Positions 16,706 to 56,124 of a DNA stretch of 64,000 nt are shown in pieces; within the stretch, counting starts at the first letter, position 1; the number at the start of each line of letters is the position of its first letter. The DNA comes from Catalinimonas alkaloidigena (lineage in GTDB: Bacteria; Bacteroidota; Bacteroidia; Cytophagales; Flexibacteraceae): positions 186,001 to 250,000 of the forward strand of contig NZ_FNFO01000007.1 of assembly GCF_900100765.1 (NCBI RefSeq), given 5' to 3'. Below the pieces are notes generated by a model. It did no database searches. It was not told the DNA's origin and saw only the letters and a program-made list of their open reading frames with translations. The position numbers and the translations under genes are program-made.

Positions 16706-18646
16706 TCACTCCCCGAAAATCCGCAACTCGGCGGCGCGGACGATGCGGTGCAGCATCTCGGCGTAGGAGATGTCGGCCAGCTTCGCCATTTTGGCGAGGT
16801 GCCCGTCCCAACACCAGCCCGGGTTCGGGTTGGCTTCCAGGAGGCGCGGTGTGCCGTTGCTGTCGAGGCGCCAGTCGAAACGGGCGTAGTCGCGGCAGCC
16901 GAGGCGGCCGAACAGTTTCAGGCAACTGGCCACCAGGAAGCGGCTCGTCTCTTCGGGCAGCTCGGCCGGAATGGACTTGATCTTCCAGTAGGGCGATTGG
17001 GGGTCCCACTTCGCTTCGTAGCCACAGATCTTCGGCAGACCTTCCGGCAAGGCGGAGTAGTCTTCTTCGATGATCGGCAGAACGGTGTAGTTGTCGGGCA
17101 GGTTGCCGATGATGCCCACGCTGATGTCTTTGCCCGTCAGGTACTCTTCCACCAGAATCGACGTTTCGTAGCCCATCTTTTCGCGGACGTACATCAGGGC
17201 CGATTCCAGTTCCAGGATGTTGTGGCAGACGCTGTTCTGCGTGATGCCCATGCTGGAATCGCCCTGGTTCGGCTTCACGATCACCGGAAACTGAATCGGA
17301 AAGTCGATGAAGGTGGTGTCTTCCGGCTTGATCACGAACGCCTCGGGCACGGGCAGGTCCAGCTCACGCGCTACGCCGCGCACCAGCGACTTGTCGTAGC
17401 AGTAGGCCAGGCACTGCGGGTTACCACCGCTGTACGGGATCTCCAGCATTTCGAGGAGGGCGGGCACGTGCAGTTCCTTCGTCGCTTCGTTGTTGAATCC
17501 TTCATCACACAGGTTGAAGACAAAGTCGATCTTCTCCTTCTCTTTCCGTGTTGCCAGCTGCTGGAGCATTTGCTTGTGGTTGTCGAAGTAAGAGAACTGA
17601 AAATCCTTGCTCTCGCCCAAGGCTTCTTTCAGGGCGTTGATCGTATGAAAATCGTCTTCGTCGAACGTGCCGTCGGGTTTTACCTTATCCTGGATGCGCG
17701 GGTCGCCCATCATGACCATCACCGAACGTTGCGTCTTGGTTTTGGAACGCTTGGGTGCCCACTTTTTGTCGGCCACGCCCGTTACCAGAATGCGGCGGGC
17801 CATCATGCCCAGGTCCTGGTTGCGTTGCGATTGCGTAGCGGTCAGTACTTCGTTGTGCACTTCGGGCGAAGCAAACCCGCTGTTTTTCAGCAATTGCGTA
17901 ATGCTCTGCGGAGTATAGAGGCGCTCAGCATAAAACTGGTCGGCAATGACGCCTTTCTTCGTATGGGTAATCACCTCACGCGACACGAGCCGTTCGCTGT
18001 CGCTCGACAGGCTGCGCTCCCGGCACACGAAGTAGTTTTTATCGATCCACTCCCAGCTGCGTGCCTCGTAATTCTTACGGATGTAGTCGCCGTCGGTCAG
18101 GTCGAGCAGCAGCTTGCCCTGCGGTTTCAGGATGCGCATTACCTCTTTCAACACCTTATAGTCGTCGTCGAGCGACTCGAAATACCCGAAACTGTTACCG
18201 GGGATGATCACGTAGTCGAACGTATCGGTGCGGTAGGGCAGCTTGCGGGCGTCGCCTTCCTTGAAGTTGACATTCAGCCCTTCGGCCTTGCTCTGTTTTT
18301 TGGCGCGGTTGATCAGGTAGTGCGAGCGATCCAGCCCAAACACGTTGGTAAAGCCCCGGCGTGCCAGTTCCATGCTATGACGCCCCTGGCCACAGCAAAG
18401 GTCCAGAATGAAGGCCTCGTTCTCCGGGTGGATCACGTTCAGAAACTGATCGATCTCGTCCTGCGTGATGGTCGGATCGTCCACCACGTCGCCGTCCGTA
18501 CGGAGGTAGTTGGCATTGAAAATTTCCTTCCACCAGTCGGCTTTCACGTAATACTCCAGGCTATCGACCGGGCCGAGTACCTGGGTGATGTCACGTTTCT
18601 TGGTCTTCTTCTTCGGGGTGGTGGAAGGTTTGGGTGAGGTGATCAT
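16706..18646 (-). CDS. SAM methyltransferase / ATP-grasp ligase fusion
   Basis: 646 aa. After a basic N-terminal tail, residues 50-290 form a class I SAM methyltransferase: motif I LDLCCGQGRHSMEL (81-94), an acidic motif II GLDRS, and LKPQGKLLLDLTDGDY. Residues 305-646 form an ATP-grasp ligase of the D-Ala-D-Ala-ligase type: FNLCDEGFNNEA, FPVIVKPNQGDSSMGI (453-468), the EEYLTGKDISVGII strand and RDYARFDWRLDSNG with LLEANPNPG near the end. The two halves are in one frame with no gap. ATP-grasp enzymes of this type join an acyl-phosphate to an amine, so the product may be methylated and amide-linked; the substrate is unknown. No obvious partner genes. The start MITSPKPSTT at 18646 is likely. 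Confidence 0.8.
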   Translation of the reverse strand: MITSPKPSTTPKKKTKKRDITQVLGPVDSLEYYVKADWWKEIFNANYLRTDGDVVDDPTITQDEIDQFLNVIHPENEAFILDLCCGQGRHSMELARRGFTNVFGLDRSHYLINRAKKQSKAEGLNVNFKEGDARKLPYRTDTFDYVIIPGNSFGYFESLDDDYKVLKEVMRILKPQGKLLLDLTDGDYIRKNYEARSWEWIDKNYFVCRERSLSSDSERLVSREVITHTKKGVIADQFYAERLYTPQSITQLLKNSGFASPEVHNEVLTATQSQRNQDLGMMARRILVTGVADKKWAPKRSKTKTQRSVMVMMGDPRIQDKVKPDGTFDEDDFHTINALKEALGESKDFQFSYFDNHKQMLQQLATRKEKEKIDFVFNLCDEGFNNEATKELHVPALLEMLEIPYSGGNPQCLAYCYDKSLVRGVARELDLPVPEAFVIKPEDTTFIDFPIQFPVIVKPNQGDSSMGITQNSVCHNILELESALMYVREKMGYETSILVEEYLTGKDISVGIIGNLPDNYTVLPIIEEDYSALPEGLPKICGYEAKWDPQSPYWKIKSIPAELPEETSRFLVASCLKLFGRLGCRDYARFDWRLDSNGTPRLLEANPNPGWCWDGHLAKMAKLADISYAEMLHRIVRAAELRIFGE

Positions 18647-46853: not shown

Positions 46854-48293
46854 TTATTCTTTGCCAGAAGTGATCTGTTCTGCCGGGTTGCCTTGGCTTA
46901 CTTCCTGACCTTCTTTGCAGACCGACAGAATGGTTTGAGTGTGGCGGATGTCGTCGGCCGGGTTTTGCGACAGCACGAGGAAGTTGGCTTTCTGACCGGG
47001 GGCCAATGTTCCCGTTTTTGTTTCGCCCAGCAATTCCGCGCCGTTTTGTGTGGCGATCTTCATCACCGCCAGCGGCGGGATGCCTGCTTGTTGCAGCAAT
47101 TGCAGTTCCAGGTGTTCGGAGAATCCCTGGGTGCGGATGGGTTGCGCGCCCGAGTCAGTGCCCAGCGCAATGGTGACACCCGCCTCGTAGAGTTTCTTCA
47201 CGTTGCGCAGGGCCGTTTCGAAGGCGGCCTGTTTGGTAGCGAGGGCAGGATCGGTGCGGACTTTCTGCTGGTAAGCGGCGCTGGTGAGCGTGTCGAGCAC
47301 CCCGGGCTCCAGCGACGCCTGAAAAAACGGATCGTCGAACCAGTCCGGGGTCTGCGCGTAGGCGACTTGATACGCATCGAGCGCCAGCGTAGGAATGTAG
47401 TAAACGCCCTGAGACTTCATCTGTTGGATCAGCACGTCGTCCACCTCCTGGTCGCGAATGCTGTGTGCGATGATATCCACTCCGGCGTCGACCAGCCCTT
47501 TAGCATCTTCCAGGTAATAAAGGTGTGAGGCCACCCGCAGCCCCTGCCGGTGCGCTTCGTCGATCACGGCCCGGTAGATGGCCGGGGACATTTTGGGCGA
47601 GGTACCCAGAAAGTCGTCGACCCAGATTTTGACGAGGTCGGGGTGCAAGGGCGCTAGCTCCTGTACGGCCCGCGTGGCTTCTTCGGGTGTGGCGACCTGA
47701 AAAACCTGTTCCGAGGGGGTGGGCGCTCCTTTAAATACGATGCCGTAGCCCGCCGTGTAGAGCGTGGCCCCGGGAAGCTGTCCCGCTTGCGAAGAATCAC
47801 GGAGGGGGAACACGATCGGTCGGTCGGTGCCCAGCGATACGACCGAGCCCATGCCGTAGGCCTCGTACTTTTTCAGTTGCCGCAGGATGTTCGCTTCCGT
47901 GTACTGGCTTTTGTCGGTCGAGTAGCCTTTCAGCGCCCCCACGTGCGCGTGCGTGTTGAGCAGGAGTGGCATCACCGTTTTGCCCGCCATGTCGCGTACT
48001 GCTTTATCCGTGGCATCCTCCGACGTAGCATGGGGCCGAATGGCCTGGATCGTGTCGGCTGCGATTACCAGATCGACGTGCGGCTGCGGTGCGTTTCCGG
48101 TACCGTCGATGAGCGTCACATCCGCTAGGATAAGGGCTGCTGCATCTTCCTGAGGCGGTGTCGAAGGGCCGCAGCGTAGCAGCAGCAAGAGCAGTACACA
48201 ACCGGGCGCAACGCGGTACGGGGGGAGTGTCGTCAGGAAACCAGTCAGGAGTTGGCGAAGCGAATCAAGAGGTTTTATAACAGAGCGGAGCAT
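46854..48293 (-). CDS. Secreted amidohydrolase (imidazolonepropionase-like)
   Basis: 479 aa from ATG 48293, with a hydrophobic N-terminal stretch and lipobox-like LLLLRC. Metal ligands: NTHAHVG, IWVDDF, LRVASHLYYLEDA, DIIAHSIRD and GTDSGAQPIRTQG, the standard amidohydrolase order with carboxylated Lys or the later His. These enzymes cleave amide or lactam bonds, often in dipeptides or cyclic imides. Lone gene between the Dph6-like gene and a long intergenic stretch. Confidence 0.85.
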   Translation of the reverse strand: MLRSVIKPLDSLRQLLTGFLTTLPPYRVAPGCVLLLLLLRCGPSTPPQEDAAALILADVTLIDGTGNAPQPHVDLVIAADTIQAIRPHATSEDATDKAVRDMAGKTVMPLLLNTHAHVGALKGYSTDKSQYTEANILRQLKKYEAYGMGSVVSLGTDRPIVFPLRDSSQAGQLPGATLYTAGYGIVFKGAPTPSEQVFQVATPEEATRAVQELAPLHPDLVKIWVDDFLGTSPKMSPAIYRAVIDEAHRQGLRVASHLYYLEDAKGLVDAGVDIIAHSIRDQEVDDVLIQQMKSQGVYYIPTLALDAYQVAYAQTPDWFDDPFFQASLEPGVLDTLTSAAYQQKVRTDPALATKQAAFETALRNVKKLYEAGVTIALGTDSGAQPIRTQGFSEHLELQLLQQAGIPPLAVMKIATQNGAELLGETKTGTLAPGQKANFLVLSQNPADDIRHTQTILSVCKEGQEVSQGNPAEQITSGKE

Positions 48294-48954
48294 AACATTA
48301 CGCTGGTTTAACGTGCGAATACCGGGATTATGGACCTCTCCCTTACATCTGAATCTACGTGTAAGAAGCCCAGGTAAAAGTAGGACTGTAAAGTGTGAAA
48401 TATTCTCATCATCAGGGGATTGCCTTTGCAGAAGGCAAAGCGAAGGGGCGTAGGACAACGCATAAAAAGTAGAAGTTCGAGGCCTCCGAGGCTACAATTC
48501 CGTCAGATTTGAGGATTCTGCGCCTTCAAAAGCGGTGAAAAAGTGTGTTAAATGTTAAGACGTAAGATTTCAAGCTATTATCACCAAACCCCATCGCGTT
48601 TCCTGGGAAGTTCCTTGCTTCGTCAAAAGTGCTGGGAGCCAAGTGGTTTTATCCTTTAAGAAGCAGCTCTACGGGGTATGAAAGCGTATGCAGCCGCAAA
48701 GCGGAAGAAGGCATATTACTCAAACGACGGAAAAATGCGTGTAATGATTGGGTTATATGTTGTTATTTGATTCGTGTATTATCTCCGCATGTCTGCCGTT
48801 ACGCCCCATTTCATTGTACTGATCCAATGCTTGATTTGATTTTAGGGTGGTCAGGGGCAATCTTTGTGTCACAACGCCAGTCTCTGACCTGTGTAGGCTT
48901 TAAGAGCAAACGCTACAAGCTGGCTTGTAAGAAGTGTCACAACCGAAAGAGTTT
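48294..48954. other. Long intergenic stretch before the T9SS gene family
   Basis: 661 nt. Short ORFs are present (for example 48629-48958 on plus) but they look non-coding. The last 150 nt are AT-rich and probably hold the promoter of the first T9SS gene. Nothing else is recognised. Confidence 0.5.
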
Positions 48955-50328
48955 ATGAAAAATCGTACGATCAAGTTCTGTAAGCGTTTGTTGCTGGTAT
49001 TGTTGGTAATGGGAGGGGCTGCGCAAACGAGTCGCGCAAAATCCATCAACAGTGCGGCGGCCGGGAACTGGAACACCCCCGCTACGTGGAGCTGCAACTG
49101 TGTCCCCGAAGCCAACGATAAGGTGACAGTGCAGCATGCGATAACGTCAACAGGAAATGTGGTCGTGAAGGAATTGGCTTTTGGCAGTGCATGGTGGCCA
49201 GTGGCGGGCAATGGCGGCTTGACCGTAGCTTCAGGTACCTTCTCGGTGACGAGCAAGAATCCGATCCTATTCGGCATCAACGGCCAAATGAACCGCCTTA
49301 CGGTCGCCAACGGTGCAAAATTCAGCACCCCCGCACCCCTCGAATGGCAACAGGGTGCAATCATGATCATTGATGGATTTTTGGAAAGTGGCGGTTTGAA
49401 TGTGACGGGTGGTCGCGACGGGCAGCTGAACGTGAGCGAAACGGGGGTGGTGAAATTCACCGGCGATATGTTGCTGGGAAGCGGTCCTCATACTTATACG
49501 GTCGACGGAGAGCTGACCGGGCAGTCCCTGCACATGACGGGCGACTCACGTTTCGACGTAGGGCCTGAGGGAGTGGTCACTTTGCTGGAAGATGTGACGG
49601 TGACCAACGGAACAGTCAACAGTCTGATCGAAGGAGCGGTGTATACCGGCGGTAACATGTCGGGTATCGGGGGAGGCAATGTGTACGTGGCGCGGTCGGG
49701 ACTGGTGTCGGTAGCGGGAGGCTTGTGGGGATCGTGGCAGGGGTTTGTCGGTGGTCCCGGCACCTTTTGCCTGGGTTGCCCGTTGCCGCAGCCGCTTCCT
49801 GTCGAGTTGGTCAGTTTTCAGGGCCAGGCTTCGGCAGCCGGTGCAGAACTGAGTTGGCAGACGGCCTCGGAAACGGACAATGCCGGCTTCGCCGTCGAGC
49901 GCTCCTGGGACGGACAGCATTATCAGCAAATTGGCTTTGTGGCCGGCCAGGGTCGTAGTACAGCGCTCCAGACCTATCGCTTCACCGACACAGGCTTTTC
50001 GGGTCGGGCGTATTACCGGTTGCGGCAGGAAGATTTCGAAGGCAGCCAGACCTACCACAAGTCGATACACGTGATCGACGAGCCTTCTGAACAGGTGCAG
50101 GCGTATCCTAATCCCTTCCTGAACACGTTAACGCTAACCAACGAGAGCACGACACCCCAACAGGTCAACGTGTACAGCCTGCAAGGCCGATTGGTCGGTC
50201 ACTATGAAGCACCTCAACAGCATACAGGAGAGTGGCAACTGCCGCTGGGACACCTACCTGCCGGGGCCTACCTGTTGGAGGTCATCACCCTTACAGATCG
50301 GCAACACGTGCGTGTCATCAAACAGTAG
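48955..50328 (+). CDS. Secreted T9SS repeat protein 1
   Basis: 457 aa from ATG 48955. Signal peptide ends SRAKS. The N-terminal module opens AGNWNTPATWSCNCVPEAND, the usual start of right-handed beta-helix surface proteins, then continues with repeating G-rich strands (LTVASGTFSV, FTGDMLLGSG). A linker LPVELVSFQGQASAAGAELS precedes a fibronectin-like part (AGFAVERSWDGQHYQQIGFV) and a T9SS sorting domain (QAYPNPFLNTLTLTN, ending RVIKQ). Part of a set of three tandem paralogues. Confidence 0.85.
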   Translation: MKNRTIKFCKRLLLVLLVMGGAAQTSRAKSINSAAAGNWNTPATWSCNCVPEANDKVTVQHAITSTGNVVVKELAFGSAWWPVAGNGGLTVASGTFSVTSKNPILFGINGQMNRLTVANGAKFSTPAPLEWQQGAIMIIDGFLESGGLNVTGGRDGQLNVSETGVVKFTGDMLLGSGPHTYTVDGELTGQSLHMTGDSRFDVGPEGVVTLLEDVTVTNGTVNSLIEGAVYTGGNMSGIGGGNVYVARSGLVSVAGGLWGSWQGFVGGPGTFCLGCPLPQPLPVELVSFQGQASAAGAELSWQTASETDNAGFAVERSWDGQHYQQIGFVAGQGRSTALQTYRFTDTGFSGRAYYRLRQEDFEGSQTYHKSIHVIDEPSEQVQAYPNPFLNTLTLTNESTTPQQVNVYSLQGRLVGHYEAPQQHTGEWQLPLGHLPAGAYLLEVITLTDRQHVRVIKQ

Positions 50329-50351
50329 AAGAAGCAAAACTTTTTATGATA

Positions 50352-50391
50352 ACGGCCAGATGGCGGGCCTTTCGTTCCGCCATCTGGCCGT
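50352..50391 (+). terminator. Strong hairpin after T9SS protein 1
   Basis: ACGGCCAGATGGCGG / CCGCCATCTGGCCGT, perfect 15-bp stem with a 10-nt loop. No clean T run follows, so it is either a weak terminator or a structured RNA. Confidence 0.6.
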
Positions 50392-51268
50392 CGCTATCAA
50401 CGGCGAACTACAGATGTACACCCGCGTGCCGTTCTCTATGTACGTATAAAGCTGAATCGGTCGGGTTCGAACGTGCCTTGCAGTGCCATCGCCTCGGTTC
50501 GCAAGGCATCCGGGCGCTGTTCTGCGCATCACCGCTCCTTTTATTACCTACCTCAGCCGGCGTCTCCGGCATCAGGGGCAGCGTGGTGCGCTCTACAAAC
50601 GCTCTGCCTTTAACGACAAAAGTTGTGTGGAAAAGAATGAAGGTAGACTAAAGGACAATGTGTTCATGGGTAAAGCATGAAATATTACAAATCCGCCTAC
50701 CAGGATGCTTTCTGCCCAGGGATGTAGGAAAAAAAGAGAGTTTTTTAACCAATCTTGCTGGTCAGAACTGCATTCAGAGTCTATGTGCCTGATTCAAGTA
50801 GTTTTAGCACTCACTTGTCCTCATGCGTTGTGCTTCCGTAGGACGTGAGATATACTCCCGGACAACTTAAGTTGATCCTGCCGGAGGCAGTAAGCCAGCA
50901 CAAATCGTTCTGATCTTATTGAAGTAATATCCTGAGCTTGTTGGTACGCTCATGCAGTTGCCAATGTGCCTTTGCAGCGGGTGTTGTTTTGGGTTCGTGC
51001 CGATGATAACTCGTTTGTAAAAGATAAAACAGCAATGGAGTTCGGTTAAGTACATCGGGTCGCATAGCCACTTTCCTGTCTCCGGGACATGTAAGAATTC
51101 CTGCATTGCCTTTATAGAACACCCCCAGACACTACGGAAAAGGAAGTTTATAGAGGATATTATAGGATCAATCAAATATAAAATATTGTTTTTCTGTTTA
51201 GATAAGAGGATCTTTGTTTTGTCAAGGGCCTAGTCTCTACAGAGCTCGCTTTCATATGCAGCAAACAA
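50392..51268. other. Intergenic stretch between T9SS genes 1 and 2
   Basis: 877 nt with scattered short ORFs on both strands, none convincing. The last 120 nt are AT-rich with ATAAAATATTGTTTTTC, a likely promoter for the second gene. Confidence 0.45.
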
Positions 51269-52651
51269 ATGAAATACTTTAACTCTTTCTCAATTTCAGC
51301 GCGCTTGTTTATCCTGCTGGCGATGGTGTGGAGCAGCACTACCGTACAAGGAGCGGCGATCAACAGTAAAGCAAGTGGCGCCTGGAACGATCCTGCCACC
51401 TGGAGTTGTACGTGCGTGCCCACGTCTGCCGATGATGTAACGATAGAACACGCCGTTACCTCCACCGGGAACGTATCGGTAAATACCCTTAAGTTCAGCA
51501 CCGAGTGGTCGCCTACGTTCGGCCACGGACAACTCACCGTAGCTTCCGGAACCTTATCGGTAGCGGGAGGCACCATTTCCTTCGGCAACAATGGGCAGAG
51601 TACACACAGCCTGACCGTAGCTTCGGGCGCCACGTTTACCACGTCAGGCATCATCCAGTGGCTGCAAGCTGCGACCATCACGGTCAACGGAACGTTTTAT
51701 GCGGGCAGTTTCGACGTCGCGAACGGCAACAACGGGAATTTCAACGTCGGCGCTAGCGGATCTGCAACTTTTGCCGGCAATGTCAACATTACCAGCGGTC
51801 CCCATTATTTTAACATCGACGGGTACTTCCAGGCAAACTCCTTGTCGATGGATGGGTCGGCCAATTTCAATGTAGGACCCGACGGTGAAGTGGTGATTGT
51901 GGAAGACGTTGTCATCAAAAACGGTCAGTTGGATGTAGACGGTACCATGGACGTCGGCGGCGATTTTACCATGAGTGGCGGCGGGCGAGCCGATGTGACA
52001 GGCACGCTATCCGTAGACGGTGAGATGAACCTGGCGTATGCAGGTATGGTGTCCGGGTCGGGCAATATTTCGGCCGGGTCCTGTACCAATGGCAACTGCC
52101 CCACCTTTACGCCGGTTCCTGTAGAACTAGTGAACTTTCAGGGAGAGGCTTCGGCGGCAGGGGCCATGCTGAGCTGGCAGACCGCCTCTGAAACCGAGAA
52201 TGCAGGCTTTACAGTAGAGCGGTCGCCCGATGGCGAAACCTACCAGGAAATCGGCTTCGTGAAGGGCCAAGGCACCAGCACCCGGAAACAAGCCTATGCC
52301 TTTACGGATGCTTCGTTTCGGGGGGCGGCCTATTACCGCCTCCGTCAGGTCGATTACGACGGCACGGTCACGTATCATGAGCCCGTACTTGTGCGTACGG
52401 CATCGCACGAGCGCATCGACGTGTATCCCAATCCGTTTATCGATGTCATCACGTTGTGGGTCAGCGAAATCGCTGATGCGCCGCAGCGGGTGACGCTCTA
52501 TAGCCTGCAAGGCCAGCCGGTAGAAGTACACGAGGCGCGGCATGCTGAACAGAAGTGGGAACTGTCGTTGGGACACCTGCCAAACGGCATTTACCTCCTG
52601 GAAATAACAACACGTAAGGAGCGTCAGCACCTGCGAGTAATCAAGCAATAG
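51269..52651 (+). CDS. Secreted T9SS repeat protein 2
   Basis: 460 aa. Signal peptide ends VQGAA. Module ASGAWNDPATWSCTCVPTSA, then a beta-helix of G-rich repeats (LTVASGTLSVAGGTISFGNN, LSVDGEMNLAYAGMVSGSGN). Linker VPVELVNFQGEASAAGAMLS, fibronectin-like AGFTVERSPDGETYQEIGFV, and sorting domain VYPNPFIDVITLWV ending LRVIKQ. Very similar to paralogue 1 in the second half, less so in the first half. Confidence 0.88.
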   Translation: MKYFNSFSISARLFILLAMVWSSTTVQGAAINSKASGAWNDPATWSCTCVPTSADDVTIEHAVTSTGNVSVNTLKFSTEWSPTFGHGQLTVASGTLSVAGGTISFGNNGQSTHSLTVASGATFTTSGIIQWLQAATITVNGTFYAGSFDVANGNNGNFNVGASGSATFAGNVNITSGPHYFNIDGYFQANSLSMDGSANFNVGPDGEVVIVEDVVIKNGQLDVDGTMDVGGDFTMSGGGRADVTGTLSVDGEMNLAYAGMVSGSGNISAGSCTNGNCPTFTPVPVELVNFQGEASAAGAMLSWQTASETENAGFTVERSPDGETYQEIGFVKGQGTSTRKQAYAFTDASFRGAAYYRLRQVDYDGTVTYHEPVLVRTASHERIDVYPNPFIDVITLWVSEIADAPQRVTLYSLQGQPVEVHEARHAEQKWELSLGHLPNGIYLLEITTRKERQHLRVIKQ

Positions 52652-52733
52652 ATACCCCCTTGATGTCTGCTTGTAAATCACGTCCTACACGAGGCCGTAG
52701 TAGTACATCTAACAACTTGTCATTGAGTAAACC

Positions 52734-53783
52734 ATGTATACAGTAAGAATCGCTCAACTCCTGTTGGGCACCGCAATGATGTTGATGGCGATGGGAAGTA
52801 GAGCACAAACCGACGGTTGCTCAACAGTCCAGGATGGTAGCTGGCGTACTACAGCTACCTGGAGTTGTGGCGTCGGTGTAGGAAACTACCCGGATAATTC
52901 CTGGCCAAACGGCGAGATGTTGTTCATCAGCCACGATATCAACATTCCTAATAACAAAACGATTGACTTAACCACTTCGGGCCTTCAGGAAATTGTGTTG
53001 CAAGACGGTGGAAGCCTGACGTTTGGCTCCAATGCTAAATTGCTATTGCCCGCGGGAGCCGTCATTACCCTGGAAGGCAGCTCGCCACAGATTTCTTCCA
53101 GTAGTAACAGCGCCGGAACACTGATCGAGATCGGTGGCAACGGGGTATACGGACGTGCGGCCGGAGGCAGCAATGGTGATTTGTCGGGGCCGGGGTACAT
53201 CGACGAAAACTCAGAACCCTCCGGAAACCCGGTGCAAAGTGCCCCCCTACCAGTGGAGTTGGTGAATTTCGTCGGGAAGGAACAGCGGGGTTCGATTCTG
53301 CTGAGCTGGGCGACGGTCTCATAAATCAACAATGCTGGCTTTGCGGTCGAACGTTCGTCCGATGGGGAAGTCTATCAGGAAGTGGGATTCGTAACAGGAC
53401 AGGGAACCAGCACGCAGAAAAACGAGTACCAATTTACCGATGTGGCTTCGCAACAAGCTCTTTTCTACCGGTTGCGGCAGGTAGATCATGACGGCGCCAT
53501 GACCTACCACAAACCTGTGCAGGTACAAACAGCGTTGTCCGGTCGTGTCGAAGCCTACCCCAATCCGTTTCGCGGGGTACTTACCTTGTCGGTCCGTGAA
53601 CTTGCTGATGCACCGCAGCGGGTGACGGTCTACAGTCTGCAGGGGCAGCAGATGGAAGTGTACGAGGCTGCCCATACAGATCGGCAATGGGACCTCTCCT
53701 TACCACACCTGCCCGCCGGTATCTACCTGCTCGAAGTCACTACGCTGACAGAGCGCCAGCACCTGCGGGTGGTCAAGCAGTAA
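52734..53783 (+). pseudogene. T9SS repeat protein 3, interrupted by an in-frame stop
   Basis: One open frame of 350 codons apart from a TAA at 53322-53324 (codon 197). Before it: signal peptide and SWRTTATWSCGVGVGNYPDN, then the linker LPVELVNFVGKEQRGSILLS. After it, in the same frame: INNAGFAVERSSDGEVYQEV and the sorting domain AYPNPFRGVLTLSV ending LRVVKQ. In both paralogues the same codon is GAA within SETENAG or SETDNAG, so this is a G-to-T change. Without readthrough the protein would lose its export signal for T9SS. Confidence 0.85.
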
Positions 53784-53857: not shown

Positions 53858-53894
53858 AAAAAAGCTCACTTCTCAGGAAGAAGTGAGCTTTTTT
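53858..53894. terminator. Bidirectional terminator next to atpC
   Basis: AAAAAAGCTCACTTC / GAAGTGAGCTTTTTT, perfect 15-bp stem with a 7-nt loop. It ends the atpD-atpC operon on the minus strand. Confidence 0.9.
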
Positions 53895-53911: not shown

Positions 53912-54166
53912 CTATTCGTTGCTGATTACCGCTTCGGCCAACACCGAAACCTGATTGCGCAAGACTTCCACCACACCGCCATCGATGTGAATGTGCTTCT
54001 CGGCACCGGTATCGGTCAGGATGCGCACATCACCACGGCCCAGGGCAGCAATCATGGCGGCGTGGTTGTTCAACACTTCGAACGAACCGTCGCTCCCCGG
54101 AAACCGTACGGACGTGGCTTCTCCGGCATAAACACGGCGGTCGGGGGTGATGATTTCAACGTACAT
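53912..54166 (-). CDS. atpC: ATP synthase F1 epsilon subunit
   Basis: 84 aa. MYVEIITPDRRVYAGEATSV and GSFEVLNNHAAMIAALGRGD form the beta-sandwich. The C-terminal helical pair found in longer epsilon subunits is absent, as is usual in Bacteroidetes; it therefore cannot fold up into the inhibitory form. It is 5 nt after atpD. Confidence 0.9.
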   Translation of the reverse strand: MYVEIITPDRRVYAGEATSVRFPGSDGSFEVLNNHAAMIAALGRGDVRILTDTGAEKHIHIDGGVVEVLRNQVSVLAEAVISNE

Positions 54167-54171
54167 ACAGC

Positions 54172-56124
<1,953 letters not shown>

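What the first reader, a model, noticed from the sequence alone, without database searches (positions are those of the whole stretch)
48955..53783. Three tandem T9SS proteins, the third split by one in-frame stop
All three share the ATWSC module, the PVEL linker and the sorting domain. In copy 3 a GAA codon seen in the others is TAA (codon 197), cutting off the export domain while the rest stays open. This is either recent decay, an error, or readthrough.
Basis: seen in the sequence. Interest (0 to 1): 0.55.

Follow-up and report, generated by a model that had tools for sequence, protein, structure and literature searches.

The report
Secretion-signal gene broken by stop codon
One of three neighbouring genes for surface-exported proteins carries a single stop codon that cuts off its export signal, most likely a recent ordinary gene-breaking mutation rather than a special way of reading the gene.

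Summary
Copies 1 (48955-50328) and 2 (51269-52651) are open type A T9SS cargo genes. Copy 3 (52734-53783) is one 349-codon frame broken by a single in-frame TAA at 53322-53324 (codon 197). Copy 3 is not a full copy: behind the stop it matches copy 2 (100 of 152 residues), but its front half is of a different, G8-like cargo type found unbroken in other genomes. The stop sits where 14 of 14 other aligned linker copies of this genome have Glu. It is the only stop among 41 own-genome linker/CTD places, and none of 150 scored CTD matches has a stop inside. Behind the stop there is no excess of residue changes (11 unique to copy 3, 12 to copy 2). None of 40 tRNA genes found reads TAA. At least two other T9SS cargo genes of this assembly also read as broken.

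Best reading: a young nonsense mutation, leaving a 196-residue product without the export signal. A base-call error cannot be excluded without reads. Leaky readthrough is possible but has little support. In-frame stops are reported as widespread in bacterial genes. This is ordinary.

The parts
48955..50328 (+). Copy 1: open T9SS cargo gene, 457 aa, TAG stop
50104..50325 (+). Copy 1 type A sorting domain (TIGR04183, 36.7 bits, cut-off 23)
51269..52651 (+). Copy 2: open T9SS cargo gene, 460 aa, TAG stop; 48% identical to copy 1
52118..52420 (+). Copy 2 PVEL linker, query of the order-wide linker search
   Evidence: with the sorting domain:
52421..52648 (+). Copy 2 type A sorting domain (42.7 bits)
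52734..53324 (+). Copy 3 as translated: 196 aa with a signal-peptide-like start (judged by eye), a divergent G8-like domain and the first 24 linker residues, ending at TAA
53322..53324 (+). In-frame TAA, codon 197, where 14 of 14 other aligned linker copies of this genome have Glu
53325..53783 (+). Remainder of the copy 3 frame: 152 open codons plus TAA; rest of linker and sorting domain
53553..53780 (+). Copy 3 type A sorting domain behind the stop (42.3 bits, cut-off 23)

Best explanation
Copy 3 is a T9SS cargo gene that recently acquired one nonsense mutation in its linker. Translation should end at codon 197. The 196-residue product has a signal-peptide-like start, so it should reach the periplasm (inferred). 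It lacks the sorting domain, so T9SS should not export it (the CTD is described as necessary and sufficient for secretion in PMC10202324), and it probably misfolds or is degraded because the stop falls inside a predicted strand of the linker (inferred from a low-confidence model). The intact sequence behind the stop is read as not yet decayed, not as evidence of use. Shown: the stop, its being the only one among the copies examined, the open paralogues and distant full-length relatives. Inferred: loss of function, recency, and that the base is real.
For: Single TAA, frame open on both sides. 1 of 41 own-genome linker/CTD places has a stop, and none of 150 scored CTD matches has a stop inside (150 of 177 candidates scored). 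Glu at the site in 14 of 14 other aligned own copies, and in 8 of 9 distant full-length relatives of 326-371 codons, Asp in the ninth (L010). No excess residue change behind the stop: 11 unique to copy 3, 12 to copy 2; dN 0.23 against near-saturated dS 2.18 for copy 2 to copy 3. Of 12 CTD matches with open frame under 300 aa, copy 3 and two more read as broken. No TAA-reading tRNA among 40. A survey found in-frame stops in bacterial genes widespread and mostly short-lived (PMC7918605, abstract and part 1 of the Results).
Against: No reads and no second strain or congener were available, so the base itself and the age of the stop are untested. Absence of decay also fits a base-call error, readthrough or a useful truncated product, and PMC7918605 argues that many in-frame stops are not pseudogenes. 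Counted in bases, changes unique to copy 3 are slightly more than those unique to copy 2 (55 against 43, not tested for significance). The selection test is weak: dS is near saturation, and about 16 neutral substitutions in the 456 bases would still leave the frame open half the time (58 of 1368 single substitutions make a stop, insertions and deletions not counted).
Confidence: 0.77

Rival explanations
1. The TAA is a base-call or consensus error and the living strain has an unbroken third cargo gene.
For: The frame is open otherwise and shows no residue decay. There is precedent: resequencing of T9SS KLIKK protease loci in Tannerella forsythia found point differences, deletions and insertions in the deposited genome (PMC4404884 section 14).
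Against: Consensus substitution errors are rare in assemblies of this quality (7.1 Mb, 38 contigs, 99.51% complete; the error rate is general knowledge). Another T9SS cargo gene of the genome carries several lesions, so real decay of such genes probably occurs, unless those lesions are errors too.
Confidence: 0.13
2. Leaky or regulated readthrough of the TAA yields a small amount of full-length, exported protein.
For: 152 open codons with a sorting domain of 42.3 bits behind the stop and no excess residue change. A survey argues that many in-frame stops in bacterial genes are not pseudogenes and may be read through (PMC7918605, abstract and part 1 of the Results).
Against: No tRNA with an anticodon for TAA, TAG or TGA among the 40 found (the set may be incomplete). 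The stop does not recur at this site in own-genome copies or in the listed, truncated hits of 148 genomes. TAA followed by A is recalled as a strong terminator context. Conservation of the stop could not be tested, because no close orthologue was found.
Confidence: 0.05
3. The truncated 196-residue protein has been kept as a periplasmic protein with a new role.
For: The signal-peptide-like start and the G8-like domain are whole.
Against: The cut is inside a predicted strand of the linker (strand 187-208, low-confidence model), an unlikely natural end. The 10 other family genomes gave one weak match to this half (G002, 31% identity), and that one is in a 330-codon open frame, not a short form.
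Confidence: 0.05

Closest known systems
Type A T9SS cargo proteins (Por_Secre_tail, PF18962 / TIGR04183)
   Same: All three genes hold this sorting domain above the curated cut-offs.
   Different: In copy 3 the domain lies behind a stop and should not be made.
Short G8-like T9SS cargo (N domain resembling PF10162 + PVEL-type linker + sorting domain), e.g. L007, L072, L073, L074, L075
   Same: Same order of parts and similar length: 330-371 codons between stops, against 350 for the copy 3 frame with its final stop. 6 of 8 aligned members, copy 3 included, hit G8 at E up to 0.1.
   Different: Only 24-30% identical to the front half of copy 3; copy 3 itself is below the G8 cut-off (14.5 against 22.9 bits).
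Nonsense-interrupted bacterial genes as surveyed in PMC7918605
   Same: A single in-frame stop in an otherwise normal frame without visible decay.
   Different: That survey focused on stops shared by two or more species; here only one genome is known.

Membership tests
Type A T9SS cargo | C-terminal type A sorting domain | tested here: met
   TIGR04183 36.7, 42.7 and 42.3 bits, cut-off 23; in copy 3 only if the stop is passed
Type A T9SS cargo | N-terminal Sec signal peptide | tested here: inconclusive
   Hydrophobic N termini seen by eye in all three (printed); no predictor run
G8 domain protein (copy 3 front half) | Pfam PF10162 score over the gathering cut-off | tested here: not met
   14.5 bits against 22.9 for copy 3; the best member of the alignment reaches E 5e-7. 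So it is called G8-like, not filed as G8
Pseudogene by nonsense mutation | In-frame stop where homologues have a sense codon | tested here: met
Pseudogene by nonsense mutation | Relaxed selection behind the lesion | tested here: not met
   No excess of copy-specific residue changes (11 against 12; bases 55 against 43). Expected if the stop is young, so the claim is limited to a recent lesion
Pseudogene by nonsense mutation | Loss of product | not testable with these tools
   Needs protein data
Programmed stop codon readthrough | Stop conserved in orthologues | tested here: inconclusive
   No close orthologue found. Paralogues keep Glu, 14 of 14 aligned, and no other listed hit (truncated list) has a stop
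Programmed stop codon readthrough | A suppressor tRNA reading TAA (one possible means, not the only one) | tested here: not met
   0 of 40 tRNAs found; set may be incomplete

The most novel reading that the evidence does not exclude
The TAA acts as a throttle: rare readthrough releases a few exported copies of the third cargo protein while most product ends at codon 196 and stays in the periplasm.
Probability: 0.04. Interest if true: 0.4.

Novelty: new member of a known kind. Interest (0 to 1): 0.1.

Why it matters
Mostly as an annotation caution: the gene will be called as two fragments, one without an export signal and one without a signal peptide. If readthrough were real, it would show stop-codon control of T9SS cargo dose, but little here favours that.

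Tried and rejected
Recurrent or programmed stop at this site: rejected for lack of a second case. Copy 3 alone carries a stop among 41 own-genome places and among the listed places of a search of 148 genomes of the order (the list was truncated and I did not count its rows).

Recoding of TAA: rejected; no stop inside any of the 150 scored CTD matches (150 of 177 candidates were scored) and no suppressor tRNA among 40.

Switching or recent gene conversion between the copies: rejected. The longest identical DNA stretch between any two copies is 16 bases. The only direct repeat that spans the stop is the linker itself, in three diverged copies (65% and 72% identical to the copy 2 one); no inverted repeat was listed there.

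Close orthologue of copy 3: none found. Of 59 genomes (G000 included) 7 had a match at E 0.001 or better, G000 included; of 395 genomes of the class 6 had one at 1e-6 or better, G000 included. Outside hits are at most 34% identical, apart from one 34-residue linker hit at 53%. A scan of genome contigs with the front half gave no relative, and one with copy 2 gave a single 32-residue match. Solved-structure search with the copy 2 tail: 0 hits. The structure model is poor (mean pLDDT 58.8, pTM 0.32, 3 sequences), so no fold search was run.

Literature searches: T9SS with C-terminal domain, pseudogene and stop codon together, 0 papers; stop codon readthrough with Bacteroidetes, 3, listing only; T9SS with CTD, periplasm, truncated and sorting, 10, of which I saw passages of one; T9SS with pseudogene, 22, of which 15 were listed and one was read in part; in-frame stops and pseudogenes, 4, of which one was read in part.

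Full report
What is there. The window is G000:C7:186001-250000 of a 7.1 Mb, 38-contig genome that is 99.51% complete. Between an amidohydrolase-like gene (46854-48458, minus strand) and atpC/atpD (53912-55704, minus strand) lie three plus-strand genes (atpC is named by position and by its matches beside atpD in five relatives). Copy 1 and copy 2 are open over 457 and 460 codons and 48% identical over 454 columns. Copy 3 starts at 52734 and its frame runs to 53783, broken once by TAA at 53322-53324, codon 197. All three hold ATWSC and PVELV and a type A sorting domain scoring 36.7, 42.7 and 42.3 bits against a cut-off of 23.

Copy 3 is a mosaic. Behind the stop it matches copy 2 over 150 residues at 67%. 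Ahead of the stop it matches copy 2 only in short pieces. Its front half resembles the G8 domain (14.5 bits, under the cut-off of 22.9); 6 of 8 members of an alignment with distant relatives, copy 3 included, hit G8, best E 5e-7. Distant relatives from other genomes have a similar order of parts in one open frame: the nine loci extracted have 326-371 codons between stops, against 350 for copy 3 with its final stop. In that alignment 8 of 9 have Glu at the place of the stop and the ninth (L010) has Asp. L004 does not show the ATWSC-type start in that alignment.

The stop. In the own genome 41 places match the linker plus sorting domain of copy 2, and one, copy 3, has a stop. I aligned the 15 best (L041-L055): the other 14 have Glu at the site, 13 GAA and 1 GAG; three weaker hits that also span the linker (L057, L059, L067) were not aligned. 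Of 150 scored matches to the sorting domain family, 148 over the cut-off, none has a stop inside the domain (177 candidates, 150 scored). Among the listed places of a search of 148 genomes of the order, copy 3 is the only one with a stop (list truncated).

Age and decay. With copy 1 as outgroup, 11 residue changes behind the stop are unique to copy 3 and 12 to copy 2; base changes by codon position are 12, 12, 31 for copy 3 and 13, 8, 22 for copy 2, in sum 55 against 43 (not tested for significance). Copy 3 therefore shows no excess of residue change and at most a slight one in bases, mainly at third positions. The dN of copy 2 to copy 3 is 0.23 and dS 2.18, near saturation, so this only says that the stop is young beside the divergence of the copies. 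Of 1368 possible single substitutions behind the stop 58 make a stop, so 14 neutral substitutions would leave the frame open with chance 0.55 and 20 with 0.42 (insertions and deletions not counted). The open frame is therefore weak evidence for function.

Base rate in this genome. Twelve sorting-domain matches have an open frame under 300 aa: copy 3 and eleven others, which I fetched and read. Two of the eleven read as broken: L081 (C7, about 132257-133691) shows a TAG and two changes of frame ahead of its sorting domain, and L084 (C4, about 633265-635408) one change of frame. The other nine looked like short complete genes or were not clearly broken, by eye. Longer genes broken further upstream would be missed, so 3 of 150 is a lower bound. 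These lesions were not checked against reads either.

Readthrough. ARAGORN over 37 loci that between them hold all 40 tRNA matches found no anticodon for TAA, TAG or TGA. Some expected tRNAs, such as Ile-GAT and Ala-TGC (recalled as usual in rRNA operons), were not in the list, so the set may be incomplete. The only direct repeat that spans the stop is the linker itself in its three diverged copies, and the longest identical stretch between two copies is 16 bases, so neither slippage nor recent gene conversion is indicated.

Surroundings. In five genomes of the same family, stretches of about 3.3 to 6.2 kb beyond atpC hold no match to the three genes at E 0.001, and copy 2's front domain has only weak matches in the family (3 of 10 other genomes, 33% identity or less). 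The array is lineage-specific as far as these genomes show.

Mechanism. T9SS cargo pass the inner membrane by Sec and the outer membrane by a C-terminal domain described as necessary and sufficient (PMC10202324, passages). Copy 3's product has a signal-peptide-like start (by eye) and no sorting domain, so it should stop in the periplasm. In a model made with TAA read as Glu, residue 197 lies in a strand spanning 187-208 of the linker; the model is of low confidence overall (mean pLDDT 58.8), better in the linker and tail (blocks of ten residues at 56-88). The stretch behind the stop, if started anew, would have no signal peptide.

Comparison with the literature. [quoted passage not shown] In Tannerella forsythia, resequencing of T9SS KLIKK protease loci found errors in the deposited genome (PMC4404884, section 14), so an error must be kept open here.

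Verdict. Error is the main rival and readthrough a weak one.

Noticed in passing
L081 (G000:C7, about 132257-133691, outside the window): Another T9SS cargo gene, with repeats resembling IPT/TIG (recalled, not tested), carries a TAG and two changes of frame before its sorting domain: it reads as a multi-lesion broken gene.
   Followed up: partly
L084 (G000:C4, about 633265-635408, outside the window): A long T9SS cargo frame changes frame once before its sorting domain.
   Followed up: partly
whole genome G000: Very large type A T9SS cargo set: 148 of 150 scored matches over the cut-off, from 177 candidates.
   Followed up: no
window 16706-18646 (minus): A 646-aa protein with a methyltransferase-like front (residues 68-180) and a D-alanine-D-alanine-ligase-like rear (341-640); the 25 of 60 families shown are all below their curated cut-offs.
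   Followed up: no
window 50352-50391 and 53858-53894: Perfect inverted repeats (15 and 16 bases per arm) behind copy 1 and between copy 3 and atpC, terminator-like in place.
   Followed up: no
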